Shown piece after piece: positions 1 through 62,853 of a DNA stretch of 64,000 bases (position 1 is the first letter of the stretch; the number at the start of each line of letters is the position of its first letter). The stretch covers positions 9,500,607 through 9,564,606 of the forward strand of contig NC_060258.1 of assembly GCF_921293095.1 (NCBI RefSeq), read 5' to 3'. The notes beneath the pieces are model-generated. The model was not told where the DNA came from and ran no database searches. It was given only the letters and a program-made list of their open reading frames with translations. A program made the position numbers and the translations under genes. This stretch comes from Ischnura elegans. Taxonomy: Eukaryota; Arthropoda; Insecta; Odonata; Coenagrionidae.

Positions 1-647
1 AATTTGATGCCATTTAGGAGAAAAGAATACGTAGAATATGGCTAACAATAAGTGCAAGATTTGGGGAAATTAATAGGAATCACAGAAACACTGATTGAGA
101 ATAATAGTTGATGTATTTTCCATAAAATAATAACTGTGCAGATGTTATTTAGGTTTACTCATACATATTCATTCTCTCCAGAGACGACTAAATCACTCAC
201 TTTGTCCATTGAAACACTGTTTTCATTAAAACTTCCACTTATATTAGATATGTCACAATCTGAAAAATATACAAGTCTATCTAAATTAATGATGAAAAGT
301 TTAAAATTCCACGAAACTGTCTGTTTAAGGTAACATGATTTTAGGAATGCCAGTTTTGTAAGACTTACCAAATGAGGTCAATGCCTTATTTTTGTTAGAA
401 GCACACGACTCATTTCATTAAACAGGTCACACAAAAACATGGTGAATGATTAACATATAAAAGCAATACCTAGCAACCTAACAACCAAACAAGGTTTCCA
501 TGGCAACCGTATCCTGCAACGTATGCAATCGTAGTATACATCGTGCTTATTCATGGCCCATATCAAACTTCCATCGGTTAAGTAATCTATAGACTCGAAA
601 CAGACAGATTTTATAAGTGTACAATTTTTCGTGTGCTCTTTGGGATA
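1..647. other. Unassigned AT-rich sequence
   Basis: No gene, tandem repeat or element end could be supported here. Open frames are short, overlap on both strands and resemble no family I know. Homology to the MITE at 61425-62022 starts at about 648. Confidence 0.5.
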
Positions 648-1065
648 TATATTAACAAGTCTCATAAGAAGAAGCCTCAACTTCTTGGAACCATTTATGT
701 CAAATACATTGCTGAAAATGCCAATAAATTAGCAGAATATTACTTAACAAAGAGTTATACATTATTTCCAAAAAAATCTTATAAGAATTTCTTAAATAAT
801 TATAAATTGCCAACATAAGTTACGGTGACTTAAATGCATGCCGGATAAAAACCTGAAAGTTATGTGACCTGCGCAACATTCTTATAGAATTCTATAAAAA
901 ATGCAAAGTTCTTATAAGAATTTCTGTAAGACTTATAGAATCCTATAAGAATTCTGTAAGACCTATAGAATCCTATCAGAATTCTGTAAGACTTATAGAT
1001 ATCTATAAGTCTTACAGAATTCTTATAAGAATTTCTGTAAGACTTATAAGAAATTTCCAATAGGG
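648..1065 (+). mobile_element. 5'-truncated copy of the TTATAAG-word MITE
   Basis: This stretch is alignable by eye with about 61610-62022: both contain the same text around 'cttcttggaaccatttatg', 'ctgcgcaacattcttata' and a terminal series of TTATAAGAATT/TATAGAATCC words. It ends at 1065 with CCAATAGGG, the same right end as the complete copy. The left inverted end (CCCTATTGG) is missing, so this copy has lost its left ~185 bp. The repeated words create a fake peptide series on the minus strand, which is not a gene. No target duplication can be assigned because one end is absent. Confidence 0.8.
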
Positions 1066-2893: not shown

Positions 2894-3562
2894 AATAGGG
2901 TGGTTTCCTATTATTTTTTTATTCCCTAAATCGAAAGATTATTACTCCTGGAGTACGTATTTCACGTTTTTTGATTTTTAAATGACGATCTCTATTTTTC
3001 GCGATCAAATGAAAAGTGAAAAATTTCAAGCGCGCGAAAACGCGACGCTTAAGTATGAATGTCGGGAAGTCTCTCCGCGTGACGTATTTCTGGTTCCCCC
3101 TCCTGCCCTGCGAGGTGACCTTGAGGCGAGGCTTAACGCTGATAAGACGCAGGCTGCTAGCGGCTAGCCTAGTACCCTGCTGGCTGGTAGCGCTTGGCTT
3201 AAATAAGGATTATTAATAACTAATCAAGCAAGGAAAACTTTCCGACCTTAGCCAGTTTTAATAAGTGATTGTTAAGACATGTTTCCCTGAGCTCTGCGCC
3301 TCATGCATGCAATGGTAACCTCAGACGACGTATAACTCCTATCCACTCGTATAGAAACTAGGTCCCTGTGACGTCACGCGGAGTGGCATCGCATGGGCGG
3401 CAATCTGGCCCTTTTCAAATGAGGATAAAAATGGACCATTGCCATTCGTCTAACCCGGTATTTCTAAAACAAAATAATTTGTATATTATGAATACACTAA
3501 TGGTGGGTAACGAATCGCAATCAATGCCTTTCGTTTTCTTTGATGAAGGAAACCACCCTATT
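2894..3562. mobile_element. TIR element, copy 1 (AATAGGGTGGTTTCC ends)
   Basis: A 669-bp unit with 15-bp terminal inverted repeats, AATAGGGTGGTTTCC at the left and GGAAACCACCCTATT at the right. A second copy of the same length lies at 7118-7784. The interior is relatively GC-rich and holds several short overlapping frames that are not conserved as protein between the copies. No clear target duplication was found, so the superfamily is not assigned. Confidence 0.8.
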
Positions 3563-4892: not shown

Positions 4893-6569
4893 ATCAGGAT
4901 GGTGAGTGAGTGAGTGGTGGTGTTGATAAGATCCCTGGTAATGTAATATACCTCAGCTATGATATGATTAAGTCTCCGTTTCTGCATCTAGTTAATGAAT
5001 CTCTGAGACTTGGAATTTTTCCAAACTCGCTCAAAGTGTCTAAGATTGTGCCCTCTTATAAGAATAAAGGTAATACTGATGATTTGAATAACTATAGGCC
5101 AATTGCACTGCAAAACGCATTTTCCAAAATTTTTGAAAAAATAGTCTACTCAAGATTTGTATCATTTTTAGATTAACATAACCTACTTTCTAGCAATCAA
5201 CATGGGTTTACAAAAGGAAAATCCACAGTTACTGCTATTACTCATGCAATTGATAAAATACTGGTATCCATTGATAATAGAAATGAAACTATGGCTTTAT
5301 TCTATGATTTTATTAAAGCATTTGATCTTGTAAATCATGACCAGCTATTGATTAAACTTTATAGATTGGGCATTAGGGGTATTCCGCATCAATGGATAAA
5401 ATCATATCTACACAATAGATCTCAGGTGGTGACCATAAAATTTGATGGAGTCAAATATACTTCAACTGCTCGTCATTCAACAGTGGGTGTTCCACAAGGT
5501 TCAACTCTTGGTCCACTGTTATTTTTATTATATGTAAATGACCTTTCATCATCCTTATCTTGTAATCACAATAATACACCAGTTTTATATGCTGATGACA
5601 CGACAGTGATAGTGTCATCCAATTCTGAACAATCATTGATTGATCAAGCTCAGTTAATTTCAAATGAGATCAGTAAATGGCCAAAGGATAACTTTTTAAT
5701 TATTAACCCTAACAAAAGCAATTTAATGCACTTTAAGACTAGTGGCCCACCATCAGAAAACATCAGTGTAAGTCTGAACAGTAAACCTATTGATCAAGTG
5801 GATAACTGTAAATTCTTAGGAATACATCTGGATTACAAAATGTCCTGGGCAGACCACATTGTATATATCAGCGGCAAACTTAGTTCTACTTGTTACTTGC
5901 TGAGACAGCTCAGTTCCACAGTGGAAAGTAAAACTTTACTAAACCTATATTACAGTGACTTTTATTCACATGTTACTTACAGTGTAATTTTCTGGGGATC
6001 AACTTATAAATCCATTAAAATATTTTGTCTACAAAAACGGGCCATGAGAATAATTGCTCATAAAGGCTATAGGTCTCCCAGTAGACCAATATTTAAAGAA
6101 TTGCTTGTACTACCTATTCCGTGTGTATATATATTGTTAACTGTTATGTATGTAAAGAATAACCTTAAAAATTTCACTTTGAATAACAGTGTACATAGTC
6201 ATTACACTAGGTCACAAAGTGATATTCATCACAATTTTGTACGCACCAGAGTTACTAAAACGGGGCCCACAGAAATGGGCATCAAACTTTTTAACAAATT
6301 ACCGACAGATATTAAAAATGTAAATAATTCTAATTTGTTTAAAGCCAAGTTAAAAAAACTACTTCTGGCTAAAATGTATTATTCAGTTGATGAATACTTT
6401 GACGATGCATTTTAACTCTTTATGTAAATATATTAACAGGTAATTACTCCTGTTTAATTATGTATATCTGTATTTTTCTGTATTTACATGTATTATTGAC
6501 GTGCCTTATATCTTGTCCATTACTAATGTACTAGATCGTTGGGCAAATAAAGATATTATTATTATTATC
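4893..6569 (+). mobile_element. 5'-truncated non-LTR retrotransposon (Jockey/CR1-like)
   Basis: The fragment begins inside the reverse transcriptase and runs to a 3' end of the form 'gggcaaataaagat' followed by (ATT)n. The same 3' tail recurs at 39956-40037, and a related LINE end (56713-57277) also finishes in (ATT)n. Upstream endonuclease and ORF1 are missing, which is the usual 5' truncation of LINE insertions. No target duplication was identified. Confidence 0.92.
4910..6415 (+). pseudogene. LINE reverse transcriptase, C-terminal two-thirds of ORF2
   Basis: Reverse transcriptase of a non-LTR retrotransposon. Visible in order: the fingers region (GGVDKIPGNVI, then NNYRPIALQNAFSKIFEKIV), QHGFTKGKST, the palm motif KAFDLVNH, GVPQGSTLGPLLF, the catalytic YADD box at about 5588, and the C-terminal part ending near HYTRSQ...FNKLPTDI...YYSVDEYF. 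One in-frame TAA at 5174-5176, just before the QHGF block, splits an otherwise open frame: the sequence on both sides is in the same phase. The start is not native because the 5' half is gone. The motif set is LINE RT beyond doubt. The clade (Jockey, CR1 or a neighbour) is inferred from the C-terminal layout only. Confidence 0.93.
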
Positions 6570-7799: not shown

Positions 7800-8757
7800 T
7801 ATTATTTTGATGAAAAAAATTCCATGCAACTTCCCCATTGTGGACAGTACTGAGGGAGTCTGGGACCATTTTTGAGATGGAGTCGGATTCCATGATGGCT
7901 ACGTTCAATTCTTCACTGCCCACTTTCTTTTTTAAAAACCACTTTCCAAACAGGGAATGCTGGGTAAAAGAAGAGGGGAAAACCCTTCATAGTGGAGCCC
8001 AAGTGTGGTTCACGGATGGCTCCATGAAAGAAGGGAAAGCAGGGGCAGGTGTCTACAGCCAATCTCCTCCTAGGAGCATACATGTTCCCCTAGGAAGATA
8101 TGCCACAGTGTTTCAGGCAGAAATTTTTGCTATCCTAACCTGTGTGCACGCCATTGAGGAGACAGGTCTCTACAAGAGACCGATCCATATATGCACCGAT
8201 AGTCAGGCTGCCCTAAAAGCCATGAACTCACCTTGGTGCAGGTCCAAGCTATTGGCTGAATGCTACAATGCACTCAATATTTTGGGCAGCCATTGCAAAA
8301 TAGAACTTTTCTGGGTACCGGGACATTCAGGTATTACTGGTAACGAGAAGGCAGATGAACTGGCTAAGGCCGGCGCTGAACAGAACCCAATTGGCCCAGA
8401 ACCAATTGTGCCAGTTGCCCCCTCAATGGGGATGGATGCAATCTAGTGTGGGGATCAACCCAACACTTTCAAATATGGCGAGAAACACCGGGGCTACATC
8501 AGGCAAAACTCTAATAGGAGAGCTCTCTCCTAGACTCGAGAGAAGACTTCTCCTTATGAACAGAAGTCAAATGCGGACAGTAGTAGGCCTGCTTACAGGA
8601 CACTATCATGTAATGAGACATATGCACCTGCTGTGGGTAACAGACTCAGATAGGTGCAGATGGTCTAAGATCGGAGAAGAAACAACCACCCATCTAATAT
8701 GCGAGTGCCCCGCAATCATGAGGACTCGTTATAGACACCTAGGGGGGTGTGCTTGAA
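7800..8757 (+). pseudogene. R1/I-like LINE fragment: RNase H and C-terminal zinc knuckle
   Basis: The C-terminal end of a non-LTR retrotransposon ORF2. The RNase H domain keeps its acidic residues: VWFTDGSM (first Asp), QAEIFAIL (Glu), ICTDSQAAL (second Asp), followed by the FWVPGHSGITGNEKADELA block with the conserved His and last Asp. After it come LLTGHYHVMRHMHLL and a Cys/His-rich tail (DRCRWSKIGEETTTHLICECP), the C-terminal knuckle of R1/I/Jockey-type LINEs; the usual second Cys of CxxC is Ser here. A change of frame separates RNase H from the tail at about 8420-8450. The RT domain upstream is missing. This is a different LINE lineage from the one at 4893-6569, which has no RNase H. Confidence 0.9.
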
Positions 8758-8945: not shown

Positions 8946-9726
8946 CCCTTTCGCGCCGAATCCCGCACCTGTGCGGCGAGGATTTTTTTTCCTCAACTAC
9001 GAATGCCACTCCAGTGCGTCCTGAATGTTCTTACCCTAACCAACGAATGCCGCGCCTGTGCGGCACAGGTCGAAAAAAGTGACCGTGGCGGACACAATAG
9101 ACCCACGGGCGCGGTCGCCCCTTGTGATCCGCCTTAGCGCGAGCCCAGTCCCTTCTTCGGCCACTCAGGTCGACCCTTTCCTATCCTCTCCACACGGTCA
9201 ACTACTGTTATTTGCAGTGTGTTTTCCAAAAAAATATTTGTTGCGTACTTTTGAAATTCAATGCTAGAAATGAATTCGTCTTTTTTCTGACCACATGGAA
9301 ATTTCAAACAAAATTCTAACGTTAATATCAACGGATTTACAGACCAACTAATAAATATACTAAATCCGTCTATATCAACGTTACAACTTCATTTAAAATT
9401 TCGGCACGCTCAGAAAAACAACACAAAATTCATTTTGAATGTAACAAATCGATGCGAGCAACAAATATTTGCATATACTTTGCATTAACATTTTAGCCAG
9501 TTGACCGCGAACTCGTGCTAGGAAGGGGCTTTTAATCCCTCTAGGGTCTGGGACAGAGGCCGAGGAAAAGGATCGGCGCCCCACTGAGTTGGGTCCAAAA
9601 ATGGTTAGGGAGGGAACCACTGCCTTTAGTCGACGCGGAAAGGCTTCGTACAGAGGAGTAAAGAAAACTTTCAAGAGACTCGTATTGAGGAAGAATTTCC
9701 TTCAACGAAGGTCCGGCACGAAAGGG
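8946..9726. mobile_element. TTAA-flanked piggyBac-like MITE 1
   Basis: The element is bordered by TTAA on both sides (8942-8945 and 9727-9730) and has inverted ends CCCTTTCGCGCCG and CGGCACGAAAGGG. TTAA targets with CCCT-type ends are characteristic of piggyBac elements. It is 781 bp, GC-rich inside, with GCCGCGCCTGTGCGGC-like palindromes near the left end. No transposase domain is visible, so it is non-autonomous. It lies 69 bp upstream of the Harbinger Myb-type start codon. Confidence 0.8.
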
Positions 9727-15932: not shown

Positions 15933-16741
15933 TCAAGTAAAATGAGTGGCAATTAGCCTGTTTCTTATGTCCCGCCCTCGCTGATTCCCAAGTACATTTT
16001 GGTCAGGGACTACATCAACTCCTAATTCCTCCAACTCTACCATGTCTTCAGCATTTAGGGGCAAACCTTCTTCGACACACGTGTTGTGCAGTACAGCACA
16101 GCTATTGACAATTCTGCTCACTTTGTCCGGCAAATAGTGTAATACTCTATGTTTCAAGAGGCATCTCCACCTGCTCTTTAATACCCCTATGCACCTTTCA
16201 ACCGTGCTGCGTGCTCTCGTCAAGGAACGGTTGAAGTTGTCCTCTGGGGTGTTAGGAGCAAAATAACCTGGGACAGGTGTCATCAGCCAGGGGGCAACAG
16301 GGTATCCACTGTCACCTATAGAAATAATTACAGACCAAGTTAATTCTTGTGTCACTAACCTAATAGTCGAAGAAATTAAAATCTTCTATTTTGAAAGTGT
16401 GATAAAATTCCAAAGGGCATATCTGATGGTTTGAATCCAATATTGCTTAGTAAATATGATAACTATGATGTAATGAATAGTACATATTATGTAACCACCG
16501 AGTAGGAATGTTTACCTCAAAATTACAAATAAAATAAAAAGATTAAGATACACCCATTCAAATCATGACTGAGAAACATGGAAAAATAGGCATGTCTATT
16601 ACCCAAGAGCCACACATTGTACCGCTCATATGCTTGAGTGAGGGCTGGCTTTAAAGCAGAATGAGATATGATGTAAGCATCATGAGTCGAGCCACAGTAC
16701 CGAGAGTTGATGTTTGTTATTTTAAGGTCCATGTCACACAC
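15933..16741 (-). pseudogene. PIF/Harbinger nuclease (HARBI1-like), 3' exons
   Basis: DDE-type transposase of the PIF/Harbinger superfamily, minus strand. Exon 16603-16741 encodes VCDMDLKITNINSRYCGSTH followed by DAYIISHSAL; the Asp after GSTH is the second catalytic acid. Exon 15933-16315 continues GDSGYPVAPWLMTPV, then the ARSTVERCIGVLKSRWRCL block with the last catalytic Glu, and CAVLHNTC near the end. The intron 16316-16602 is GT-AG and joins in phase between LLG and DSGYP. The N-terminal exons, with the first catalytic Asp, are not found: a pogo/Tigger element begins at 16960, only 220 bp upstream, and no matching exon was seen beyond it. Paired in opposite orientation with the Myb-type gene at 9796-12133, as is common in Harbinger elements. 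Confidence 0.9.
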
Positions 16742-40423: not shown

Positions 40424-42767
40424 TAAAGGCCTGGTTACACGGTGCATTAACCCGTACGGGTTAATGTCTAAATGTATGAACGCGAGAATGAACGGAAAAA
40501 TTCACCGTGTAACCACCCCAAAATGTACAAATGCATGAACGCGTGAACGGAAAATAGAACATGTTCTAATTTCGTTCATGCATTCGCACAAGTTGATAAC
40601 AGAGCCACCTGGTGGGAAACGACACATTTAGTTGTCATCTGCAGGGCTATTCCACGGCCGTCTTGGCTATTCAGTAACTCTTTACGCGTATTTGTTCATT
40701 TGTACTGTATCGTAAGTGCTTGAATCCTACCACAAACTCACCATTTGCATCTACACTAATATTTGCATAGATTATCCTTGTATGTATGCCGGACATACCA
40801 AGTTTATGCCTATGGTATCTTATTGGTTGTATTATGCCGGAACAAAACAATCGATGAGGTTGTCACAGAGTTTTCAATACGACATTTGTGAAATACAACG
40901 GCAATCATACGACTTATAGAACACATTTAAACATAATTAATATCATACGAATTAACGACAATTCTACCTTTTATACGTCCGAGGTGGGAATGCGCTGGCT
41001 CACCACAAAAATACGACTCACATTACGCAAGTTCATAAATCGGCAAGACCTCTAAACCAACATCTTTTCCATCAACAGCAAATATCTTCTTAACTTTATA
41101 ACCGTCCCGGACAAAAGTAGAACAAAGTATTAAAAATATCTACTCTCATACATCATCTACACTCAGTGAAACAGGTGACAGAAAAATGTCTAGTGAACAC
41201 GGCTTAAAAACAAGATGCGTCTACAAATTTTCAGCCTAAGTATTAACTTTGATAACGGTTTGAAATAAATAGAGTACTATTGAGATATAGCATTAAGCGA
41301 GCGTTAACGATAAATATTAAATATAAATAAATATTACTGGCACGAAATGAAACAACATCGGCAACTACAATGAAAACCACTGTTTACACGGCAGCGCAAA
41401 TATATTACCAGTATGTGTAATTTCCTGGTCCTACAGGAAACAACGAAAAGGGAATTATTTTCTGGTAGGTATCGTCTGCTTCCTACCTAATGATACTGTT
41501 TTCACATTTAAATTTTGCGCACTGTAAAGGGAATAAACAAAAACTAAACGCCTCGCGTTACGAGAAAATGTGTGAAAACTTGTGCGAACGCATGTACCGC
41601 ATACATGGGACACTCAATACTAAAAAACGGGACCAGCGTTTGTAGCGCCACTGTGGGCGGAAGGGAACTATCAGCAGTAGAGCGATTTAGCCCCGCCCCC
41701 TTTCGTAGTGCAAGATGCCTACTTTATAGGATACCTCAATTGCCGCGTATTTCGAAAGGGAAAATGAGAACACAAAATAACATGTACTTGTTTTATTGCT
41801 CAAAAATCACATATCATGTAGTTACAAGCAGGATATCAGAAATAAACCACAAAACATGAAAGCAAACATCCAAATCATGTCGTAACACATGCAAAGTTAA
41901 AATGCGGTACAATGAAATCGAGTTAAATTTTAAGAATAACAGTAGTTCATTATACATCCCATAAAGTACAATACTAAGTTTTATCCTAGCGCATCATGAA
42001 TTTAAGCGCTAATATGAATAAGACTTCTACACCAAATACAAGTAACAGTTAGTAACATTCTTTAGGAAAGTTACATATTACAATACCACCCATAAAATAT
42101 CACGTATTAAAGTCAGTTATAATTATGGAAGGCCATAAAAGCATATGGATGTTTAAATACAAGGAGGTTTCAGTGTTGGAAAGTCACATCATAACACTCA
42201 TTACCATTCATAAAAAATACTTTTGAATTAGGCTTATCATGAAAGCCATCAAAGCGTGGATATTTAAATACAAGAAGATTTCAGTTTTGCAAAGTGGTAT
42301 TTTGATAACACTTTAAACTTACAAGGTAAGTAGCATTCGAAGGAAGGCTTATAACAATAGCATCACAAAGTGGTTGTGAAAACACAACATGCAGGCTTCA
42401 GTGTTATCAGCACCAATACTAACTCCTAACATTATAAATCACCAAGTGAACCAGGGATGGCCAACCTATATGACAAATGTAACTGTTGTAAGCCATTTAA
42501 TTACAAAAATGTAATTATAAATACTGGCAAAATCCGTCAGTACTCGTCAATTACCACGAGTAAATGGTGAATTATATTGGTTATCGATCATTTTCACCAG
42601 TAATAGGTGTATGTTTAAAGATAACTGATTATCTGTACAAGTTTTTTAAAAATTAGTTAATTCTTCTGTATTGATCAGTTTTTAGGTTCAATTTAGTACC
42701 ACCACTAAAAATAGATTTATTAATGATATTAGATTGGCCACCCATGTTCAAAATTTATAATCCTAAG

Positions 42768-42853
42768 GAATGTGTCGATGCCTAAAGTTATTGATTCTCG
42801 ATACCGATACCAAGTATAGGAATCAATGGTATTGAGAATCGACACATCCCTAA
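42768..42853. repeat. Short foldback (AATGTGTCGAT ends)
   Basis: GGAATGTGTCGATGCC at the left is mirrored by GAATCGACACATCCC at the right, and GATTCTCGATACC is mirrored by GGTATTGAGAATC. The whole palindrome is about 85 bp. It lies inside the 4.2-kb TIR element. Confidence 0.7.
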
Positions 42854-43207
42854 TCGTAATCCTATGAAACAATTACTTGGGGTAGGACTTGTGAACTACA
42901 TCTATGACCCACTTGTTTTACATTAGAAATTTAAATTAAATGAAACACAGATATACTCATGATACAAATGATAATAGAAAACCACTATTTTATGAAAAAT
43001 GAAATATATTGAAAACAAATAACCTTTCAATGAAATTGAAATCAAAGTGGAAGCAGAAGCACGACTTGGAAGCACGTTCGAGCATCATATCGAAACCCAT
43101 AGCTTCGAATGCTCCCACACTTATTTTCAAGTGGATCTGGATTTAAATTCCTTGGGGTAAGGTTCTTAAATCCAATGCTGTGTAAAGTTTGCCAAAGGGC
43201 CTTAATA

Positions 43208-43467
43208 TTACTTCCTAGTCCTACCCCAATTAATTAAAGAGGGAGTCCTACTCTCCTTCTGCCCATGAATGAACACTATTGACTGCAGGAGTTTCTGAGC
43301 CTCACCCCAAAATTGCACATGCTGAGATGAAGGAGACACTGCACACCGTAATGGCTTCCCAGCAGGTGGCTTCAGGGAATCACCATTTATGCTATCAAAA
43401 AGCCTGTCGAAGAAGTATAGGTGCTCAGCTGTCTCCCCGGCTTCGACTCCCAGATCTCCATTTGCAG
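43208..43467 (-). pseudogene. P-element/THAP9-type transposase, C-terminal exon
   Basis: Minus-strand exon with acceptor CTATTTTTCCAG just upstream of 43467. It encodes GETAEHLYFFDRLFDSING, then GKPLRCAVSPSSQHVQFWGE, AQKLLQSIVF and PSLINW, the order of blocks in P-element and THAP9 transposases downstream of the catalytic core (the FFDRLFDSING and FW.EA..LL.S blocks). It ends at a TAA at 43208-43210 shortly after the PSLINW block, earlier than full-length relatives. Upstream minus-strand exon-like pieces (about 43750-43820 and 43935-44140, each with GT-AG-like borders) could belong to the same gene but were not recognised. Confidence 0.7.
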
Positions 43468-43639
43468 CTGGAAAAATAGCATGGAAATTGCCATAAAAAT
43501 AAGGGACATTGTTGTCTATCAAATAGATATGAGGAGAAAAGGTCTTATTTAGAGGCAGAGTTCAATTGCTACTTCATCATTACAATCCTGAATGCATGTG
43601 TGTGATAAAAATTTAATTTTATGGATTTTAAGAACATTT

Positions 43640-43935
43640 TGTAATTTAGCAGGCTTCCCCACTTTTTAACACAAACTAAAAACAAAACAGACTCAATAAT
43701 AAACATATGTATTCAAATATCTGAATAATACTCACGCAAGAGAGAAGGTATATATCCCACTGGAGGTGGAAGGGACTTCTTTCATTATAACCTCTCTAGC
43801 GGCATCCAATGGGGAATCTAAGAGAAAAGGCAAATGGAAATTTAGCAGGCCTCCCCACTTTTTAAAACAGACTAAAAACCAAACAGACTAAATAATTAAC
43901 TGATGTATTCAAATCACTGAATAATACTCACGCCA
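43640..43935 (-). repeat. Local duplication of an exon-intron junction
   Basis: The phrase GCGTGAGTATTATTCAG, followed by about 100 bp including AAAAAGTGGGGA and GCCTGCTAAATT, occurs twice on the minus strand, about 193 bp apart. Each copy directly follows an exon-like open stretch and looks like the same splice donor and intron start. It is a small tandem duplication within the 4.2-kb element. Confidence 0.6.
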
Positions 43936-44629
43936 ATGCCCGAGTAATATTAAAGGTTTCTTCTTGTGAGAGCTGGGGAGTAGTTTCACTAAATCAAGCC
44001 CGATATTAAAAATTGCATTCTTCACTTGATCTTGACGACATTTTTGAAAACTGTCTGCCTTTTCGTCAATTCCATATACTCCCGGCAGCCATGTAACTGC
44101 TCCAAATCGGATGGCGAATGTGATAGTCTGAAACGGTATAATGAATAATAAAGATTTCAATGACAATATTTTAGGTTCACGCTTAGTGAAAAGTACGGCC
44201 GAATTTCAACGAACCTAACATTGAAACAATACACTGGATCACTTACCTTGTTCACAAATATCTGGCCTCCTGAGATGCTCTCCCTGCTTGAATCCGCCGG
44301 CGACCGTTAACAACCGTTAACGCCGGTTCCACCACCCTCCTTCTCGGCCTCCCAAATTTGAACTGCCTGTTTGTATTACTGCGCATGCGCGAAATTTCCT
44401 TCCAAATTCCAAGAGAGCTCATGTAGTACCCTTCCATACGTGCCTACTGCCCTGGCGCTAGCGTCGCGGGGGCAACTTCGGGAAGGGGAGTGCGCCCTGT
44501 ATGATGTACCGTGTAACCGCTCATTCATGCTCCTCGTTCACGCAAACGTCCATGAATTCAGACATGCAAACAGACACGCATTCATACATTAACCCGTACG
44601 GGTTAATGCACCGTGTAACCAGGCCTTAA

Positions 44630-50597: not shown

Positions 50598-51157
50598 GGG
50601 TTGGGTTGGGTTGGGTTGGGTTGGGTTGGGTTGGGTTGGGTTGGGTTGGGTTGGGTTGGGTTGGGTTGGGTTGGGTTGGGTTGGGTTGGGTTGGGTTGGG
50701 TTGGGTTGGGTTGGGTTGGGTTGGGTTGGGTTGGGTTGGGTTGGGTTGGGTTGGGTTGGGTTGGGTTGGGTTGGGTTGGGTTGGGTTGGGTTGGGTTGGG
50801 TTGGGTTGGGTTGGGTTGGGTTGGGTTGGGTTGGGTTGGGTTGGGTTGGGTTGGGTTGGGTTGGGTTGGGTTGGGTTGGGTTGGGTTGGGTTGGGTTGGG
50901 TTGGGTTGGGTTGGGTTGGGTTGGGTTGGGTTGGGTTGGGTTGGGTTGGGTTGGGTTGGGTTGGGTTGGGTTGGGTTGGGTTGGGTTGGGTTGGGTTGGG
51001 TTGGGTTGGGTTGGGTTGGGTTGGGTTGGGTTGGGTTGGGTTGGGTTGGGTTGGGTTGGGTTGGGTTGGGTTGGGTTGGGTTGGGTTGGGTTGGGTTGGG
51101 TTGGGTTGGGTTGGGTTGGGTTGGGTGGGGTTGGGTTGGGTTGGGTTGGGTTGGGTT
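50598..51157 (+). repeat. (TTGGG)n array, ~112 copies
   Basis: About 560 bp of uninterrupted pentamer with a single base change (GGGTGGGG at 51124-51130). The pentamer is GGGTT on this strand. TTGGG is one of the variant insect telomere motifs reported in beetles, and is one base from the common insect TTAGG. Runs of three G every five bases can form G-quadruplexes. Apparent long Val-Gly-Leu-Gly-Trp and Pro-Thr-Gln-Pro-Asn frames on the two strands are by-products of the pentamer. Confidence 0.98.
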
Positions 51158-52587: not shown

Positions 52588-53290
52588 CGCCTGTTTGATA
52601 TTCACACGCATTGAATAAACGATATATTAATGCATGCTAGTCTGTATTAGCCGCTCTGAAAGCATTTGCTATTGACTTAATACTGCTTTTTAATTCATCG
52701 CCAGAGATTTCTTATTATTCACGGAATAATTTCTTAATTTCAGGCAATCCATATAGATAGACCACTAATAAGGTTGTACATGAAATATTCTCCAATATAT
52801 TGATGACTCTTGCCATAAAGTGAAGGGTATCTGATTTTTTATTTGTCGGTTATCGCCTGTCTGATATTCACACCTATTGAATAGACGATATATTGATGCA
52901 TGCGAGTCTGTATCAGCCGCTCTGAAAGTTTATTCGGGATTGCCACCGGATAAGGTTCTCCATCTCTGCCGACGTTTCGATGGCCGAGTCGTCCATCGAA
53001 ACGTCGGCTGAGATGGAGAACCTTATCCGGTGGCAATCCCGAATAAACTTCAACAACATCATACGCCGGGAAAACCTCAGATCTTTCTTCGCTCTGAAAG
53101 GATTTGATAATAACTTATAATTCTGCTTGTTAATTCATCGCCCGAGATTTATTATATTCACGGAATAATTTCTTCATTTCAGGTAATCCATATACCGCTA
53201 ATAAGGTTTTACAGGAAATATTCTTCAATATATTGATGACTCTTGCCATAAAGTGAAAGGGTATCTGATTTTTTAACTTTCAGTTATCGA
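52588..53290 (+). repeat. Tandem duplication, ~268-bp unit, second copy interrupted
   Basis: 52588-52855 is repeated at 52856-53290. Shared phrases include ATTCACACCTATTGAAT/ATTCACACGCATTGAAT, AGCCGCTCTGAAAG, and TTGATGACTCTTGCCATAAA. The second copy is longer because a hairpin insertion (52929-53090) interrupts it. The duplicate ends about 60 bp before the EnSpm-like transposase ATG and may be part of that element's left end. Confidence 0.85.
52929..53090. mobile_element. 162-bp hairpin insertion with 10-bp target duplication
   Basis: The insert is flanked by GCTCTGAAAG at 52919-52928 and 53091-53100. Most of it is a near-perfect inverted repeat: arms of about 56 bp (52927-52983 and 52993-53049), one mismatch, loop CCGAGTCGT. 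The inner arms read CCGACGTTTCGATGG and its reverse. The remainder, after the right arm, is about 40 bp ending AGATCTTTCTTC. No poly-A tail. The uninterrupted copy of the target at 52588 confirms the boundaries. Confidence 0.85.
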
Positions 53291-53349
53291 TAGATTGAGG
53301 GTTTGACTACGCTCGTTACATCAGTATTATCTCATATCGCTTTCCAGTC

Positions 53350-54773
53350 ATGCCTAAAACCAATTACAAGCCTTGTGATGAAGTGTGCCCGAGGCACAAA
53401 CGCAGACTACGGTTTAAGAAAGTGTTACCTGAATCTGTTTCCATGCAATACGCTGATGTAAGTGCTGTCAGTGAAAATGTTCCAGATGTGCATGTTCCGG
53501 AGACATCTAAAGAATGCAATATGCCACAGTGTGGTCACGCGGAATACATCGAGACGACTGACGTATTGATGGATAGAACTGAGCCTGTTACAGATTCGGA
53601 AGATTCAGATGGAGAAGCAGGTTTCGATTTCGAAAATTTCAAGGCTCAGTTAGCCGTTTGGGCAGGAAGTGATAGCATTACTCAAAGTAAAGTGAATGAT
53701 CTTCTTAAAATTTTAAAATCGCACCCTGATTTATCCGAGTTACCTTCGGATTGCAGGTCCCTGTTAAACACACTTCGTAAAACTGTAATAGGAACCGTTG
53801 CCAGTGGGCAGTATCAGCAGTATCTAGGTATACAGCGATCGTTGGTAATAGCATGTGCCGGTTCAGATGTGCTGTTGATATCAGACTGTGATTGGGGGCT
53901 ACAGTTCAATATTGACGGTTTGCCCATTGCTAAAAGTAGTGGCAGCCAAGTGTGGCCTATTCTTGTGGGAATTGTCGTATTTCCCTTGGATTGATCCATT
54001 TGTAGCTGGTCTCTACCATGGTTCTGTGAAACCCAACTCGTGTGACGAATATCTTAGTGAATTTGTCAGTGAATTGCAGGATCTGCTACAGAATGGTTTA
54101 TTGATTGATAGCCATAAAGTTTCAATCCACATCCATTCCTTCATTTGTGATGCTCCGGCTCGCTCTTTTATCACCCAAACTAATGTCAGGGTGTCATGAG
54201 AAAAATGTTGTTGTCATTCATAAATGGTTGCAGCCTTGTGAAAATGAAAAGGTGTGAAAGAGATATTGTCAACACTAGACTCGTGAAAATGTCTGCATTC
54301 ATTCCGTGTGAGTTTGCGAGGAAGTCTAGATCAACTGATGACCTGCTAAGGTGGAAGGCCACTGAGTTTCGCCTTTTTCTGCTCTACCTAGGACCGTTAG
54401 TGTTGAAGAATGCTTGTAATAATTCCTTGTATGTTCATTTCCTGTGCTTGCATTTTGCAGTAAGGATATTAGTGAGTGAGAAAATGATTACAGATGGCCT
54501 TGATTATGCGAATGAATTGCTACATTACTTTGTTACCACCTTTGGGCAACTATATGGACCAGAGAAATTGTCATATAATGTTCATTGTCTAACACACATA
54601 GCCTCTGATGCAAGGAAGTTTGGCACATTGGACAAATTTTGTGCTTTTAGATATGAAAACAAATTGAAATCAATCAAGAATCATTTAAAAAAATTTGATA
54701 AACCGCTGCAACAGATACACAGGAGAATATCAGATAGGAATTATGTGGCAAAGAATGTCAGGAAATGTAGGCA
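53350..54773 (+). pseudogene. EnSpm-like transposase, N-terminal part
   Basis: Transposase of the animal EnSpm/CACTA-like (tnp2-related) type. From an ATG at 53350: a Cys/His- and acid-rich N-terminus, then DLSELPSDCRSLLNTLRK, FNIDGLPIAKSSGSQVWPIL, GLYHGSVKPNS, EYLSEFVSEL, and FICDAPARSF, all hallmarks of the family. After about 54196 it resumes with MSAFIPCEFARKSRS, DLLRWKATEFRLFLLYLGPL, YGPEKLSYNVHCLTHIASD and PLQQIHRRI. The blocks that should lie between CDAPAR and IPCEFARK (a Cys-rich region and FP.DYMHL..LG) are missing, so an internal deletion is likely. There is a frame change near 53960 and another near 54190. The coding is cut at 54773 by a 5.5-kb insertion and resumes at 60272. Confidence 0.85.
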
Positions 54774-55863
54774 CCCCAGTGAAAATTTTGTATACAATTT
54801 ATATACAGGATGTATACAATGTACACATTTTGTATACAATTGTATACAGCTGTATAGAATGTATAAAATGTGTAAATTGTACACAATGTATACAATTTTA
54901 TACAGAATGTGTACAATGTGCACATTTAGTATACAATTGTATACAGCTGTATAGAATGCATAAAATGTGTAAATTGTATACTATGTATACAATTTTATAC
55001 AGAATGTGTACAATGTGCAAATTTTGTATGAATTTGTATAAAGCTGTATAAAATGTTTACTTTGTATAAATTTTATACATTTTATGAAAATTTATACAGT
55101 TGTGTAGGCTGTATAAAATTTGTACATTTTATACAATGTAAAGGTATGCGTACATCAATGTGTAAATATCTGGGTTTGGGAGTTAAAGCACCACAACTAT
55201 GCTCATTTTCTATTCTTTACATCGTAACGCATTTTTACTTTAAAAAATGGTGTTAAAATTGTTGCTAATTATTTTTAAACTTAAGAAATTATTATAAACA
55301 CCAAAGAGTTCCAATAAACCATTCCTTTATTGTTGGTTAACCGAATTAAATTAAAGAAATTGTAATATTTTGAAAATGTTTCTAAAATTGTTGCTAACTT
55401 GGTTTAAACATTAGTAATCGTTATAAACATAATAGAATAAGAGTATCACTCATTCCACGTTTCTCAACCGTATAAAATGTGGGAATTCTTAATTTTTGTA
55501 AAAGTTGCTAAATTTGTTTACATTTAAGTAATTGTTATAATCAACAAAAAGGCTCAGCCAACTCTTCTCAACCATACAACATGCGGAAATTGTCACATTT
55601 TTAAAAGTTGCTAGCTTTATTTAAACTTTACATTTTCTTATGAACAATGTAGATTAATAAGTTATTAATTTGCTGTTTTGTAACCCGTAAGGTATGTAGA
55701 AATCGTTAATGCTGGTAAATGTTATTAGCATTGTTGCTAACTTTGTTTAAACTTAGTTAATTGTTATAAACAATAGTAAACTTCAAAATAGCATTCATTT
55801 GTTGTTCTGAAACTATAGAAGGGGTGAAAATGTAAAAAAATAATTTCTCGCATAAAATCTCGC

Positions 55864-55994
55864 AAGTGAGCACGCTTCTTATTCCCGCCGATTATATTCA
55901 AATAATCGATTATGCAAAATAATCGGATGTCCATAATCGATTCAATAATCGCAATAATCGAAAGCAAATAATCGATTATTACGTACAATCGATT
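55864..55994. repeat. AATAATCGATTATT word cluster
   Basis: ATAATCG or CGATTAT occurs about nine times in 130 bp, including the palindrome AATAATCGATTATT. Possibly one end of a decayed word-array element; no inverted partner was located. Confidence 0.5.
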
Positions 55995-56712
55995 TCTTTG
56001 CCCATCTTTTGTTACCGTTATTTTGTGATGGCGAATTTAGCTGTCATGAACATGCTTAGCTGTGATGAAAAATATTGATTAGTAGCAAATATACGTTGAA
56101 GTATGCTATGGAAGAAGAAAATAATCCGTGCTTCGTAGTGAATACTGACAAAAAGGGATTGAAAGAATACTGTTTCATGCACAATTGAATCAACGCCTGA
56201 ATAAGTTTTTGAATTCCCGGAAACAGTGGCTTTTAGCGTCACGAAGAGATTTAAGAAGTTGCCATTGTCAGCATCAACCCATCTCTGCTGTGCTGCATGT
56301 TAATGTAAGTAAATGGAACATTTTTTTTCCATTCGATACTTATGTATGATTAATGAACCGCCAATTACTATCCATTAATTATTTAAGATTACTCATTATT
56401 TTATTCTCAGGGTAATTACAATTTAGCATGGTCTTTACTTTCGCTGGAATAGTGAAAAGAATCCATTCAGACGGTTAAAGTTGAAATATCAGGGTTCTCG
56501 CAGTAGAATCCACTTTGTTAACAGTTCTTTATGACATTAGTCTCAACCTCAATTAACTCATTTATGAATGATTTATCTTGAAAATGAGTAACTATTTGGA
56601 ATATGTCGAGGAATAATAGCAATTAATAAGCTGTTCTAAACATAGCCATCAGTTGAACTCTCTCCGATCGTTATAATTTAGGCATTGATTTGTGCTTTAG
56701 TACATTTTAACA

Positions 56713-57277
56713 GACAATCCACTTGGCTTATTGTGTAGTTTTATGGGGAAACACAAGTGCTGCTGCTAGAGCATTCTCTATGCAAAAAAGAGCCTTGAAA
56801 GTTATGGCAAATGTGTCCATCAGGTCTCCTGGAAAGCCATTATTTCTAAAATATAATATAATGACACTACCAAGTATGTACATTTTTTACTGTGCATTAT
56901 TTGTAAAAAAGAACCCTACCTTATTTTTACCAAACTCCTCGGTTCATGCCTATCTGACCCGTGGGAGTGAAAATATACATATTTTACAACAATTATGTGC
57001 CAAAAGAGGTCCACATCACTCTGCCTCGCTTATTTTTAACAAATTGCCTACGAGTATAAAACATATTTCAAATATTAATGTTTTTAAGACAGAATTTAAA
57101 AAATTTTTACAGCCTAAGGGTTATTATAATGTAAACGAATTCTTGTCTGATATTGTATGACAACATGTATGTTTTGATGTTCTATGTCACATGTTCTATG
57201 TCTGTTCTATGTCTCCCTGACAATGTTCTATGTCACATGTTTGACCCATGGAACAATAAAGATATTATTATTATTAC
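56713..57277 (+). mobile_element. Second 5'-truncated LINE, C-terminal coding and 3' tail
   Basis: Coding from about 56713 to 57160 (AYCVVLWGNTSAAARAFSMQ, KRALKVMAN, VHAYLTRGSENI, LIFNKLPTSIKHI, KGYYNVNEFL) aligns block by block with the C-terminal end of the LINE at 4910-6415 (VTYSVIFWGST, KRAMRIIAH, FNKLPTDIKNV, YYSVDEYF) and is open throughout. After the stop, the 3' end GGAACAATAAAGAT plus (ATT)n resembles the other tail but is not identical, so this is a related subfamily. It is inserted in the 5.5-kb element and therefore younger than it. Confidence 0.88.
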
Positions 57278-57577
57278 ATATTGCACTCAAGGGCATAAGT
57301 AACACGTTTCTAAGTTGTTTCTGTACAATAAGATTGCAATCCTTAAAATTTTTGTTATGTAATCAATTACTCGTGTTTGTTGATAGAAAAATTAGTGGTA
57401 TATTAAAATCTATGGTTATCACCTGTTTGATAAGCATGTAGGCAGGATTTATGATGATTAAGTACCAAGTCTGCTAAGGAAGTATAATGTAAGCAAATCA
57501 ATTGGTATTAGTGTATTTATAACAATTTTATATTTACAGGCTGCAGTAAATTAAAACAACATAATAGCCAGTGCCTC

Positions 57578-57772
57578 ATGTGGATGGGAGGAATGGCACC
57601 TGGGTTTTCTCACTTGGAGAGGAAAGTAGGTGCTTTATTGGCTTGTGACCCAAAGCAAAAGGGTGCTGCTGTGGAGGAGATGAAATTCAGCCAATTGCCA
57701 TTGACATCAGATGAGGATTTCATCAAACTCTGCCGTAGGATAAGTGAAGATCCCTCATTTGAGCCAAAGGTG
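57578..57772 (+). pseudogene. DUF4806-like exon
   Basis: An ATG at 57578 opens MWMGGMAPGFSHLERKVGAL and continues to MKFSQLPLTSDEDFIKLCRR, ISEDPSFEPKV, ending at a donor GTAAGT at 57773. The pattern F..LPL.S.EDF..L...I..DP.F...VV is like the start of the DUF4806 domain, which sits at the C-terminal end of proteins found in transposon-rich insect genomes. A further coding-like stretch at 58474-58570 (DASDVELKGCLSNWLNQAK in one frame) may be the next exon, but the splice phase does not fit simply. The matching N-terminal type of sequence is found outside this element, at 61025. Confidence 0.45.
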
Positions 57773-59394
57773 GTAAGTGAATAATGATAATTTGTGTGCT
57801 GCCATCCTGATTCAAATAATGTATGATTTTTTAAATGAAAGAACAATTAAGTTTTTGTAAGAAAGTTTCATAAGAGTTTCATTTGTAAGAAAGTTTCAGA
57901 AGTATATCTTGAGCTCGCCAGACATTCGTAGGTGCTTGGAATTCCAACTGCTATAAAAATACTCAAGTACAACATAATTTTGAAGTGGGTATGGATTAAT
58001 GTCCAATGAAATATTAAAAAATTATGGTATGATTGGATTTTTGTTATTTCATATGCACTTGTGCACGCATACTACATGTGCATACTAACCATGACAACTG
58101 TGTTAATTTCATTGGTGAATTTTTCTTCTGGCTGAAAACATGATTTTTATTATTCTTGTATTAGCTGTTAACTCTTCATTGATTTGGTCTTTTTTATCTC
58201 TAGATGCAATGTTTGGTAGCAGTTGAATGAGCACTTCTACAAAATATGTTGCGTCGTCTTAGAATGACAATGTAGCAGAGCTGTAAGCCCTTACAGGCAA
58301 ACTTCAGAAGAATTCGGTTAAGAAATCATTTTATAGCACTCCAGTGTGTCCTGTTATTTTTTGTGAGTGCATCCAACAAGATATTCTAAGATTATTATAA
58401 TAATTGATCATTGAAATGAACTTTTAACTTATTACATTAAGTGATATTAACAATGTTTTTTATAATTTTATAGGTGTATGCAGAAGGGTCGACCGTGATG
58501 CATCAGATGTGGAGCTGAAAGGGTGTCTGAGTAATTGGCTCAACCAGGCTAAAGTCGGGAAAATAAGATAGTAAGTAGTTGCTTCTCATTTCTCTGCCAC
58601 ACTAATTCGATCATCCCAGACATTTTCTTCATATTTTCCATTCCCTCTTACAATAGGTATACACTATAATGTTCCATGATATATCATTTCACATGGAGTA
58701 ATTACTATTTTCTCTTCAGGGATTGGCAGGATAAACAGACTGAGGATCAGGCTGATGAAGACAATAATTTTGCTTAATAAGTTCATCAGTAACGATCTAT
58801 AAGTATGTAACCATGTAAGTTCCATGCGCAACCTTGTACTCCCATAACTAAACAAGAATTCAAAAGAATGAAGTTTTAATTTTACATTCTCACAGCCAAT
58901 CAGCATACTTGTGAATGTTTTGATGAAATTCGAGCAATATGTTTTTACCTTTTGAAGATTTCTGTATTTTAGTTATTACCATGTGTGGCCTAGGGGGTCA
59001 TAAATTTTTTAAAGTGTTTCTGTCTTTGATGTTTCCTATTCAGTTTGTAAGTATTTCACTCACTTCATTAATAATGATTAACTATCGATGACTAGATATC
59101 TACTTTCGGTATGTCCACCGCTGCCTCAGCATGTACATAATTAATGAGAAAAATAAATTCTTCAGCATTTATTTGTTGCCCATTTTATTAAATAAATTTA
59201 GCTCCCAAATTCTGTGCATGTGAAATGACTAACAATTGATAGAGTGGAAAATTTTAAATTTTGTTGTTCTAAATTAATCATTATTTAGGAGAGCATTTTA
59301 AAAGCAGAAATTTTAAGTCAGTTTTTCCTCAGCAAGTGTCACTACAGAAATGGTAGGTGTGGAACTAGTTTTCCTAGTATGTAGCAATGTGACA

Positions 59395-59596
59395 CTACAC
59401 ATTTTCAGCAGGTGTGATGTGACAAGTTTGATGCGACAAGTTTGCTGCAAGTTTGATGCGACAAGTGTGCTGCATGTTTGAAAAAGCATAACAAGGCGGT
59501 TTGATTCAAGCTTGCAGGCTTGTCATGACAAGCTTTCTGCAAACTTACAACTATGTCGTGACAAGCTTGCAGCAAGTTTAGCATGCTATCTGGGAT
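59395..59596. mobile_element. Partial word-array element, GACAAGTTTG/CTTGTCATGACAAG
   Basis: The words GACAAG, CTTGTC, GCTTGCAG and CTGCAAG recur in both orientations over 200 bp. The right end reads AGCATGCTATCTGGG, so reversed it starts CCCAGATAGC, similar to the CCCAG ends of the other elements here. No matching left end was found; this copy appears truncated. It lies within the 5.5-kb element. Confidence 0.55.
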
Positions 59597-60271
59597 CAAT
59601 GTTAACACACATAAAGAACTCAGAACAATATTTCAATTGCCAGCTCACTGAAGAGTCGATGAACTAATATTGTCCACCAACAAGAAGATAAAGGTATCAC
59701 CAATTATCAATGGGAACACAAATTAAGAACTCAAAAGAGTAATCTAATTGCCAGCTCACTGAAGAGTCCATCAGCTAACATTGTTCATCACAGGAAGCTA
59801 AAGTTCTAAATACAAATGTTTACAATTTTATACAGGATTTCCTGTATAAAACTGTACACAATTGTATACAAAATGTGTACATTGTATACAAATTTGCCTT
59901 CATACAATTGTATACAGTGTATACAATTTACACATTTTCATACACTGTATACAATTGTATACATTTCATACAATTGTATACGTTTCATACATTTGTATAC
60001 ATTTCATACAATTGTATACATTTCATACAGTTGTATACATTTCATACAATTGTATACATTTCATACAATTGTATACATTTCATACAATTGTATACATTTC
60101 ATACAATTGTATACAGTGTATGAAAATGTGTAAATTGTATACACTGTATACAATTGTATGAAGCCAAATTTGTATACAATGTACACATTTTGTATACAAT
60201 TGTGTACAGGTTTATACAGGAAATCCTGTATGAAATTGTATACAATTGTATACAAAATTTTCACTGGGGCA

Positions 60272-60674
60272 GCAAAGCTATGATGATGAATGCATCATTG
60301 ATACAAGCCATCCTCAAGTATTACCCCAGGGATTCAAGTTACCGTGCTACTCAAGCATCAGATTGAATGGTTTCAAAGTAACCACTCAAATCCCAAATAA
60401 CTGTAATATTGAAAGACAATGGCATTGTTGTAGTGGAATTTATTGGACCAGATGATTCAGGAATAGCATTTTTTGGCAAGAGATTCCAAAATGTTGAAGA
60501 TTATTATAGTAGCCCTCAGTCTTCATTGGATGTCGGCATTTACAAGGCATCTAATTTATCGGATGTCTTGGTGAAATGTTCTATTGCGGAAATGAAATGC
60601 AAAGCAATGATGTTTCCGTATGAAGAAAATGGTGCGGGTGGTGTATCTTTCATTGCGGAAATAATTCATCAGTG
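60272..60674 (+). pseudogene. EnSpm-like transposase, C-terminal part
   Basis: Continuation of the gene interrupted at 54773. In phase with the upstream part it reads QQSYDDECIIDTSHPQVLP, then LPCYSSIRLNGFKVTTQIPN and NC. A 2-nt loss near 60400 changes frame, after which VILKDNGIVVVEFIGPDD, GKRFQNVEDYYSSPQSS, LDVGIYKASNLSDV and MKCKAMMFPYEENG follow to a stop at 60672-60674. The blocks F...DYY..P..SS..GIY..S.LS......S...CK....PY are the typical C-terminal end of animal EnSpm-like transposases. Confidence 0.82.
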
Positions 60675-61024
60675 AGCCTCGTGATTCGAAGGCAGACTGA
60701 TCTGACAGAAGCTATAATGGTAAGGCTGATCCCATTCACTTGCACTCATGTGGTTCAGGGATATTCTTAAGAAGCTTTCATTCAATTACAAGACCTTAAA
60801 TCTCATCCTCTTAATGACTAATATTGAACAATGTCCTGATACTTAGTTGATTAAATAATAGTATGTACATGGTTCCTAATGTAAAACATAATTTTAATAC
60901 ACATGTAATATTCACTGTTGGTTCTGTACATCTGCGATTGATATTAGAATGTATTAATTCTCTCCTGGTCCATCACATATCATTGTATTACACTGTCTAA
61001 AACAGCTAACTTCTCCATTTCCAG

Positions 61025-62306
61025 GGCAAAGTGGGTGATAGTCAAGTTTCTAGATTTGCTTGATGATGAGGAGCCTGCTTTTACATTCTGCGTTATTCCG
61101 ACGTCATGGCTGGAAACAGATGATGGGGCAGACTATGCCAGATGGCCTCCATCTATAAATTCCCAGAAGGAATTGAAAGCTATCGAAAAAATGATACAGG
61201 ATGGTACCCCAGCATGTATTGAGTGGCCCATCCACATTGTTATTGAAAAAACTCCAGAAATTGGTGAGTTTGTGTGTGGAATAACTTTAAAGCAACCTAT
61301 ATTTACTGCAACCTACCTTTTAATTTTTGTTGTTATGGCTGGAAAATTTTATACAAACCTTTGTCAAAATCTCTTTAAGTGTTTACATTGCATCCTTTCT
61401 TTAGACACATACAAAGAGGCTAAGCCCTATTGGAAAATTCTTATAAGAAAATTTCCTATCAGAAATTGGGCATTTTTCTTATAAGTAAATTTCTTATAAG
61501 AATTTTTCTATAAGAAAATTTCTTATCAGAAATTGGACGTTTTTCTTATAAGAATTTTTCTTGTAAGAATTTTTTCTTATAAGAAAATTTCTTATAAAGT
61601 AAGGCTTATATAATATTAACAAGTCTGATAAAAAGAAGCCTCCACTTCTTGGAACCATTTATGTCAAATACCATGCTGAAAACGCCAACAAAGAGTAATA
61701 CATAATTTCCAAAACAAATCTTATAAGAATTTCTTAAATAATTAATTATCAATTGCCAAACATAAGTTATGGAGACCTAAATGCATGCTGGATAAAAACC
61801 TGAAAGTTATGCGACCTGCGCAACATTCTTATAGAATTCTATAAGAAATGCAAAGTTCTTATAAGAATTTCTTTAAGACTTATAGAATCCTATAAGAATT
61901 TCTGTAAGAATTATAGAATCCTATAAGAATTCTGTAAGACTTATAGAATCCTATAAGAATTCTGTAAGACTTATAGAATCCTATCAGAATTCTGTAAGAC
62001 TTATAAGAAATTTCCAATAGGGAGGAGTATGAAAAATGCATTGGAAAGCTGGGGCAAGGCCGGAACCTGCTCAAAGGCTATGAGGCAAGGCAACAAGTTC
62101 TCCTAAATAAAAAAAGGGTTGTCTACCCCAACAAGAAGGCATTTCCAGCGGAAGAGTTGTGTTCCGATGACGACAGTATATTTTTGTTGCCTGAACTTTC
62201 CCCAGTTACCAAGAGGAAGAAAATTGATACAGGCAAGAATACCGTTGCATTCCAGAGATATTCTTTCATGGCTTTGTGCAAACACTATCCTATGTCAATG
62301 CTTATT
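61025..62306 (+). pseudogene. Second gene of the EnSpm-like element (DUF4806-protein N-terminus)
   Basis: After an acceptor (TCCATTTCCAG, exon from 61025) the sequence gives AKWVIVKFLDLLDDEE, CVIPTSWLETDDG, ARWPPSIN, and ends at donor TTG|GTGAGT (61262). The intron 61263-61404 is GT-AG, and the next exon starts DTYKEAK. This WVIV.F...VIP.SWL...RWPP...TY..A order is the N-terminal pattern of insect DUF4806-containing proteins. At 61425 a MITE interrupts the codon series; beyond it, EYEKCIGKLGQGRNLLKGYE, VLLNKKRVVYPNKKAFP and SDDDSIFLLPELSP follow in phase if one AG is removed with the MITE. A second MITE begins at 62307. It lies 350 bp downstream of the transposase stop, same strand. The first exon was not placed. 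Confidence 0.6.
61425..62022. mobile_element. 598-bp MITE, CCCTATTGG ends, TTATAAG word arrays, AG duplication
   Basis: The ends are CCCTATTGGAAAATTCTTAT and the mirror TAAGAAATTTCCAATAGGG, 22 of 23 bp matching. AG lies on both sides (61423-61424 and 62023-62024). Both subterminal zones are packed with TTCTTATAAGAA and TATAGAATCCTATAAG words. It is inserted in an exon: removing it with one AG restores GCT AAG GAG TAT GAA in the frame of the exon on either side. A 5'-truncated copy lies at 648-1065. Confidence 0.88.
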
Positions 62307-62795
62307 CCCAGTGAGAAATGGGTGGTGGAATCCACGTGGAACCCACGTGGAAATGTAACGTGGATACCACGTGTTTTTGGTCGTGGAATCAACGTGGAAC
62401 CCACGTGGAAATATGGTGGAAAAATTAAAACAGCAGTAGGTGCTGTCCTAAAACCATTAAAACCTCAACCACTCTATATCTAAACCTTCTATATATGTGT
62501 CTACGATTTTTCATGTGCTCTCATGGCTGCCTTTCCACGAATTATATAAAAATAGAATGTGCGATACATTTTCACATAACTAGCGTGGTTTCAGGATGAT
62601 AAATGACGAAATGTCACCAGAGAGTTAAGTTCCACAAATTAGAAATTCTGTTTAACATTTTATGCTAATCACCACAAATCCACTTGAAATCAACGTGGAT
62701 TCCACGTGGGTCCAACCACTCAATATCCACCACCACCAAATATCCACCACTCAACGTGGGTTCCACGTGGATTCCACCACCCATTTCTCACTGGG
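62307..62795. mobile_element. 489-bp MITE, CCCAGTGAG ends, CCACGTGG words, TT duplication
   Basis: Perfect 42-bp inverted ends, starting CCCAGTGAGAAATGGGTGG at the left and mirrored to CACTGGG at 62795. TT lies on both sides (62305-62306 and 62796-62797). The subterminal words are CCACGTGGAA and AACGTGG. It lies in the tail of the second gene of the EnSpm-like element. Its first bases (CCCAGTGA) nearly equal those of the 5.5-kb element (CCCCAGTGAAAA). Confidence 0.9.
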
Positions 62796-62853
62796 TTATA
62801 TTGCAACCATTAACCCTGGTGCATGCATGGGTGAACACATGACCACTACTTAA

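What the first reader, a model, noticed from the sequence alone, without database searches (positions are those of the whole stretch)
53350..62797. One EnSpm-like transposon hit three times by CCC...GGG elements with 2-bp target duplications
Seen: inserts at 54774-60269 (CA), 61425-62022 (AG) and 62307-62795 (TT) each have inverted ends beginning CCC and a 2-bp direct repeat at the border. For the first two, deleting the insert plus one 2-bp repeat rejoins coding sequence in the same phase (AGG CAG CAA; GCT AAG GAG TAT), which independently confirms boundaries and duplication length. Known: 2-3-bp duplications occur in the CMC/EnSpm group, but its ends are usually CACTA/CACTG; TA and TTAA families are excluded. 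Inference: the three inserts belong to one superfamily, perhaps an under-described one, that often lands in this element.
Basis: partly seen in the sequence, partly recalled or inferred. Interest (0 to 1): 0.8.

Follow-up and report, generated by a model that had tools for sequence, protein, structure and literature searches.

The report
Three nested non-autonomous DNA transposons
A decayed transposon has been interrupted three times by other DNA transposons that copy two bases of their target on landing; the insertions are real and cleanly bounded, but nothing seen here shows a new kind of element.

Summary
I1 (54774-60269), I2 (61425-62022) and I3 (62307-62795) have inverted ends starting CCC and identical 2-bp flanks (CA, AG, TT). 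For I1 and I2, dropping the insert plus one 2-bp copy keeps the reading frame; I3 offers no frame test. A second I2-family copy ends with the same bases at 1065 before different DNA, confirming I2's right end.

I1 and I2 ends are alike beyond chance (16 of 24 positions; 0-1 of 688 CCC-starting controls do as well); I3 resembles I1 only with a one-base gap. No pair meets Repbase's published end rule. The reading frames scanned in the inserts gave no transposase. ISL2EU, piggyBac, Tc1/mariner and PIF/Harbinger fail on duplication or ends. CMC/EnSpm fits the 2-bp duplication, not its usual CA/CAC ends. The host's EnSpm label rests on a sub-threshold DUF4218 match plus recalled motifs. No genome was held, so empty sites and full-length relatives could not be sought. 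Best reading: nested non-autonomous cut-and-paste elements, superfamily unassigned.

The parts
53350..62830 (+). Decayed host transposon, coding parts only (53350-54773, 60270-61424, 62023-62306, perhaps on to about 62840); both ends not found
   Evidence: Open frames 53299-53994, 53879-54199, 54184-54773, 60234-60455, 60382-60675, 60948-61424, 62025-62306; DUF4218 below cut-off at 54352-54773; no end pair starting CACTA or CACTG reached the cut-offs used
54774..60269 (.). Insert I1, 5496 bp, ends CCCCAGTGAAAATTTT, 2-bp duplication CA
   Evidence: Ends and flanks; frame rejoins
54772..54773 (.). left CA of the I1 target duplication
60270..60271 (.). right CA of the I1 target duplication
54785..55140 (.). 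I1 left subterminal repeats, palindromic TGTATACA motif
59810..60260 (.). I1 right subterminal repeats; a large fold-back of the same motif
56711..57160 (+). LINE reverse-transcriptase tail lying inside I1
   Evidence: 38% identity over 146 aa, E 2e-37, to the LINE at 5180-6412
61264..61404 (+). probable intron of the host's second gene, 141 nt (a multiple of 3), 20 nt before I2
   Evidence: GTGAGT donor and TTTAG acceptor by reading the sequence; length
61425..62022 (.). Insert I2, 598 bp, ends CCCTATTGGAAA, duplication AG (61423-61424 and 62023-62024)
638..1065 (+). Second, 5'-incomplete copy of the I2 family; right end TTTCCAATAGGG shared, flank differs
   Evidence: 84.5% over 440 columns between 61608-62022 and 645-1065; alignment; ends
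62307..62795 (.). Insert I3, 489 bp, ends CCCAGTGAGAAATGGGTGG, duplication TT (62305-62306 and 62796-62797)

Best explanation
Three non-autonomous cut-and-paste DNA transposons inserted one after another into a transposon that was, or became, inactive. A transposase supplied in trans, from elements outside the window, binds the CCC-starting ends and probably the subterminal repeats, cuts the element out, and joins it to a target at two positions 2 bp apart; host repair of the gaps makes the 2-bp duplication. Shown: ends, duplications, and frame continuity for I1 and I2. Inferred: mobilisation in trans, the 2-bp staggered cut, and a shared transposase type for I1 and I2. I3 may use the same or another transposase. 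The superfamily cannot be assigned here.
For: Exact ends and 2-bp flanks; 0 of 200 simulated windows had three such pairs; frames rejoin for I1 and I2 with a 2-bp, not a 0-bp, duplication; a second I2-family copy stops at the same right end in other DNA; I1 and I2 ends 16 of 24 alike, 0-1 of 688 controls; no Pfam family at or above its cut-off in the 20 stretches of I1 scanned (two of them parts of others) or the 7 stretches in or overlapping I2 and I3.
Against: No empty site or full-length relative was seen, as no genome was held. The second I2 copy lacks a left end in the window: the only CCC on its strand in 1-640, at 557, does not start a matching end. The end likeness of I1 and I2 is weaker over 11 bases (26-27 of 688 controls) and both are AT-rich. 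I1 carries exon-like reading frames (57551-58780) of no recognised family, so that it is non-autonomous is an inference from missing matches, not proof; not every short frame was scanned.
Confidence: 0.8

Rival explanations
1. All three inserts are members of CMC/EnSpm with unusual ends, mobilised by an EnSpm transposase like that of the host.
For: 2-bp duplications are recorded for CACTA elements, and CMCT lineages make 2-5 bp duplications (passages of PMC6004678, and PMC12730594). All six subterminal regions hold more 8-bp palindromes than their shuffle mean, though only two (I1 right, I3 left) exceed the most of 100 shuffles; EnSpm elements are known for subterminal repeats (recall).
Against: The ends are CCC..GGG, while the papers give CAC..GTG for CACTA and CA..TG for most CMCT lineages. 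Shifting I1 or I3 inward to a CA start destroys the duplication (by reading the flanks). No transposase was found in the inserts.
Confidence: 0.35
2. I1 and I2 share a superfamily, and I3 belongs to a different one; the common CCC and 2 bp are partly coincidence.
For: I3 against I2: 11 of 24 ungapped, matched by 68-123 of 688 controls; I3 against I1: 10 of 24, matched by 146-184. I3's repeat motif CCACGTGG is unlike the AT-rich motifs of I1 and I2.
Against: With a one-base gap I1 and I3 share CCC(C)AGTGA; 13-14 of 688 controls are as good over 16 bases.
Confidence: 0.35
3. ISL2EU (PHIS) elements, the other well-known 2-bp group of animals.
For: 2-bp duplication; a PIF/Harbinger-type DDE_Tnp_4 fragment lies elsewhere in the window (E 2.8e-17).
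Against: ISL2EU makes AT duplications at A|AT|T and usually begins GG (PMC4482050, first of four parts read); here CA, AG, TT and CCC.
Confidence: 0.05

Closest known systems
CMC/EnSpm (CACTA) non-autonomous elements, such as CMC-NA_1 and CMC-NA_2 of Glypta fumiferanae ichnovirus (passage of PMC6004678)
   Same: Short non-coding elements with inverted ends and 2-bp duplications
   Different: Those end CAC..GTG; these end CCC..GGG
piggyBac and its MITEs (passages of PMC2872659)
   Same: Ends starting CCC or CCY
   Different: TTAA duplication; here CA, AG, TT
ISL2EU (PMC4482050, part 1 of 4)
   Same: 2-bp duplication in animals
   Different: AT duplication, ends usually GG
Repbase families named DNA2-N (unclassified non-autonomous elements with 2-bp duplications; recalled, from no call)
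   Same: Class by duplication length without a known transposase
   Different: Ends not compared, since Repbase is not held

Membership tests
CMC/EnSpm | 2-5 bp target duplication | tested here: met
   2 bp at three of three inserts; range
CMC/EnSpm | CA..TG or CAC..GTG ends | tested here: not met
   CCC..GGG; feature, said to hold in most cases
CMC/EnSpm | DDE transposase with C(2)C and H(3-4)H motifs | tested here: inconclusive
   No Pfam family at cut-off in the frames scanned of the inserts; a full-length relative could not be sought
one superfamily by the Repbase rule | same duplication length and at most 1 mismatch over end positions 1-11 | tested here: not met
   3, 6 and 4 mismatches for I1-I2, I1-I3, I2-I3 ungapped; rule
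ISL2EU | AT duplication and GG ends | tested here: not met
   CA, AG, TT; CCC
piggyBac | TTAA duplication | tested here: not met
Tc1/mariner | TA duplication (recalled) | tested here: not met
   CA, AG, TT
PIF/Harbinger | TWA 3-bp duplication | tested here: not met
   no 3-bp match at any of the three; feature
host element as EnSpm | EnSpm-type transposase with DUF4218 region | tested here: inconclusive
   DUF4218 E 0.044 and 0.031, about 14 bits, cut-off 27; no other Pfam or NCBIfam support; ends not found

The most novel reading that the evidence does not exclude
The inserts are members of an under-described superfamily with CCC..GGG ends, freely variable 2-bp duplications and dense palindromic subterminal repeats, whose members spread as non-autonomous elements from 0.5 to 5.5 kb.
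Probability: 0.15. Interest if true: 0.55.

Novelty: new member of a known kind. Interest (0 to 1): 0.25.

Why it matters
Insertions into a coding sequence fix both the element's ends and the duplication length from a single copy, which is rare without a genome-wide alignment. If a full-length relative were found, these three loci would say at once which transposase makes 2-bp duplications with CCC ends. As it stands it is ordinary transposon nesting.

Tried and rejected
Own-genome search: no genome is held. End words of the three inserts in viral contigs: 0 matches each. Host transposase pieces in viral contigs (two queries) and genome contigs (one): no relatives. DUF4806 was my guess for the host's second gene and for an exon in I1; Pfam gave no such match for either, and the two do not align with each other, so it is dropped. 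A search of papers for the six end words gave 64 papers, 30 listed; the titles seen are about other subjects and look like primer matches. Other paper searches gave no CCC-ended 2-bp superfamily in the listings and passages that I saw; that is not proof of absence from print. Host ends: several 12-base pairs with at most one mismatch, none starting CACTA or CACTG, none convincing. Rfam: no match at gathering score. Target preference for the host was considered and not claimed, because the region was picked for its insertions.

Full report
What is there. I1 (54774-60269, 5496 bp), I2 (61425-62022, 598 bp) and I3 (62307-62795, 489 bp) lie at exactly the coordinates given. Their ends are inverted copies: I1 24 of 24, I2 22 of 24, I3 44 of 45 ungapped. 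Each is flanked by the same two bases on both sides: CA, AG, TT. No flank matches at 3 to 10 bases.

Is it chance? Two random dinucleotides of this window agree with probability 0.073, three of three 4e-4. A scan for CCC..GGG pairs (11 of 12 end bases, 100-6000 bp) gave 9 pairs, 3 with a 2-bp repeat. In 200 first-order Markov sequences, 8 had 9 or more pairs, but none had three with a 2-bp repeat (0: 146, 1: 47, 2: 7). So the number of pairs alone is only mildly unusual; the pairs with matching flanks are not chance.

Independent evidence from reading frames. Dropping I1 and one CA carries a 196-codon frame into one open for 61 codons; dropping only I1 meets a stop after 31. Dropping I2 and one AG carries the frame into one open for 152 codons, 94 of them before I3; dropping only I2 meets a stop after 27. 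I2 lies 20 nt after a probable splice acceptor; the intron read from the sequence, 61264-61404, is 141 nt, so the frame is the same read through or spliced. I3 has no such evidence: its right-hand frames close after 5, 18 and 14 codons.

A second copy. The right 415 bp of I2 match 645-1065 at 84.5% over 440 columns. Both end TTTCCAATAGGG and then differ (AGGAGT against AACTTT), which confirms I2's right end from an independent locus. The left end of that copy is missing: likeness fades near 638, and the only CCC on that strand in 1-640, at 557, is not a matching end. No second copy of I1 or I3 was found in the window at E 1e-4.

Inside the inserts. I1 has arrays of the palindromic TGTATACA motif at both ends, I2 of CTTATAAG and AGAATTCT, I3 of CCACGTGG. 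All six subterminal regions have more 8-bp palindromes than the shuffle mean, but only two (I1 right, 34 against at most 16; I3 left, 3 against at most 2) exceed the highest of 100 shuffles. I1 also holds a LINE tail, 38% identical over 146 aa to the LINE at 5180-6412, and exon-like frames at 57551-58780 of no recognised family. Pfam was run on 20 stretches of I1 (two of them parts of others) and 7 in or overlapping I2 and I3. Nothing reached a family's cut-off; the sub-threshold rows (NdhS 0.045, SipL 0.073, DUF5847 0.024, YthB 0.099, Sas-6 0.86) look like chance. Frames shorter than about 40 aa, and some low-complexity frames in the repeat arrays, were not scanned.

Do they belong together? 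Against 688 CCC-starting 40-mers of the window (both strands, satellite and the inserts' own ends left out), the I1-I2 likeness of 16 of 24 is reached by 0-1; over 16 bases by 0-7; over 11 bases by 26-27. I3 against I1 ungapped (10 of 24) is reached by 146-184, and with gaps over 16 bases by 13-14. I3 against I2 is reached by 68-123 ungapped over 24 bases and by 176-218 gapped over 16 bases. So I1 and I2 probably share a superfamily; I3 is open. The published Repbase practice, at most one mismatch over positions 1-11 with equal duplication length (passage of PMC4455052), is not met by any pair (3, 6 and 4 mismatches).

Which superfamily? ISL2EU makes AT duplications and usually starts GG (PMC4482050, first of four parts read). 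piggyBac makes TTAA. PIF/Harbinger makes TWA. CACTA elements with 2-bp duplications exist but end CAC..GTG (passage of PMC6004678), and CMCT lineages mostly end CA..TG (passage of PMC12730594). CMC/EnSpm therefore stays possible on duplication length and is unsupported by the ends.

The host. DUF4218, a domain of EnSpm transposases by my recall, matches at E 0.044 and 0.031 but at 14 bits against a cut-off of 27. Other likenesses to EnSpm transposases that I see in the reading frames (such as the DG..WP stretch near 53900) are recalled, not tested. Its ends were not found, and it is decayed: its frames are broken by stops apart from the inserts.

Verdict. Observation confirmed; the one-superfamily reading is half supported (I1 with I2), and preference for this host is not shown. 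Interest is low to moderate because such nesting is common and the decisive comparison needs a genome that was not held.

Noticed in passing
2898-3558: 661-bp element with 12-bp inverted ends GGGTGGTTTCCT and TA on both sides, like a Tc1/mariner-type MITE.
   Followed up: no
8946-9726: 781-bp pair of ends CCCTTTCGCGCC / CCCTTTCGTGCC flanked by TTAA, piggyBac-like.
   Followed up: no
40428-44625: 4.2-kb element with long inverted ends starting GGCCTGGTTACACGGT, flanked by TTAAA on both sides; a TTAA-type element.
   Followed up: no
5177-6415 and 7814-8446: LINE reverse transcriptase (PF00078, E 1.3e-31) and an RNase H frame (PF00075, E 3.5e-17).
   Followed up: partly
15933-16385, minus strand: PIF/Harbinger-type DDE_Tnp_4 fragment, E 2.8e-17.
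   Followed up: no
19632-39948: Satellite of about 86 copies of a 237-bp unit, 96% alike, a third of the window.
   Followed up: no
50598-51157: 112 copies of GGGTT (TTGGG); TTGGG is a telomere motif of some insects by recall, so this may be an interstitial telomere-like stretch.
   Followed up: no
52588-53290: Direct duplications and a 125-bp 96% inverted repeat just before the host's first frame; perhaps its subterminal repeats.
   Followed up: no
494-507: GTTTCCATGGCAAC, which by recall looks like an RFX X-box promoter site, upstream of the second I2 copy.
   Followed up: no
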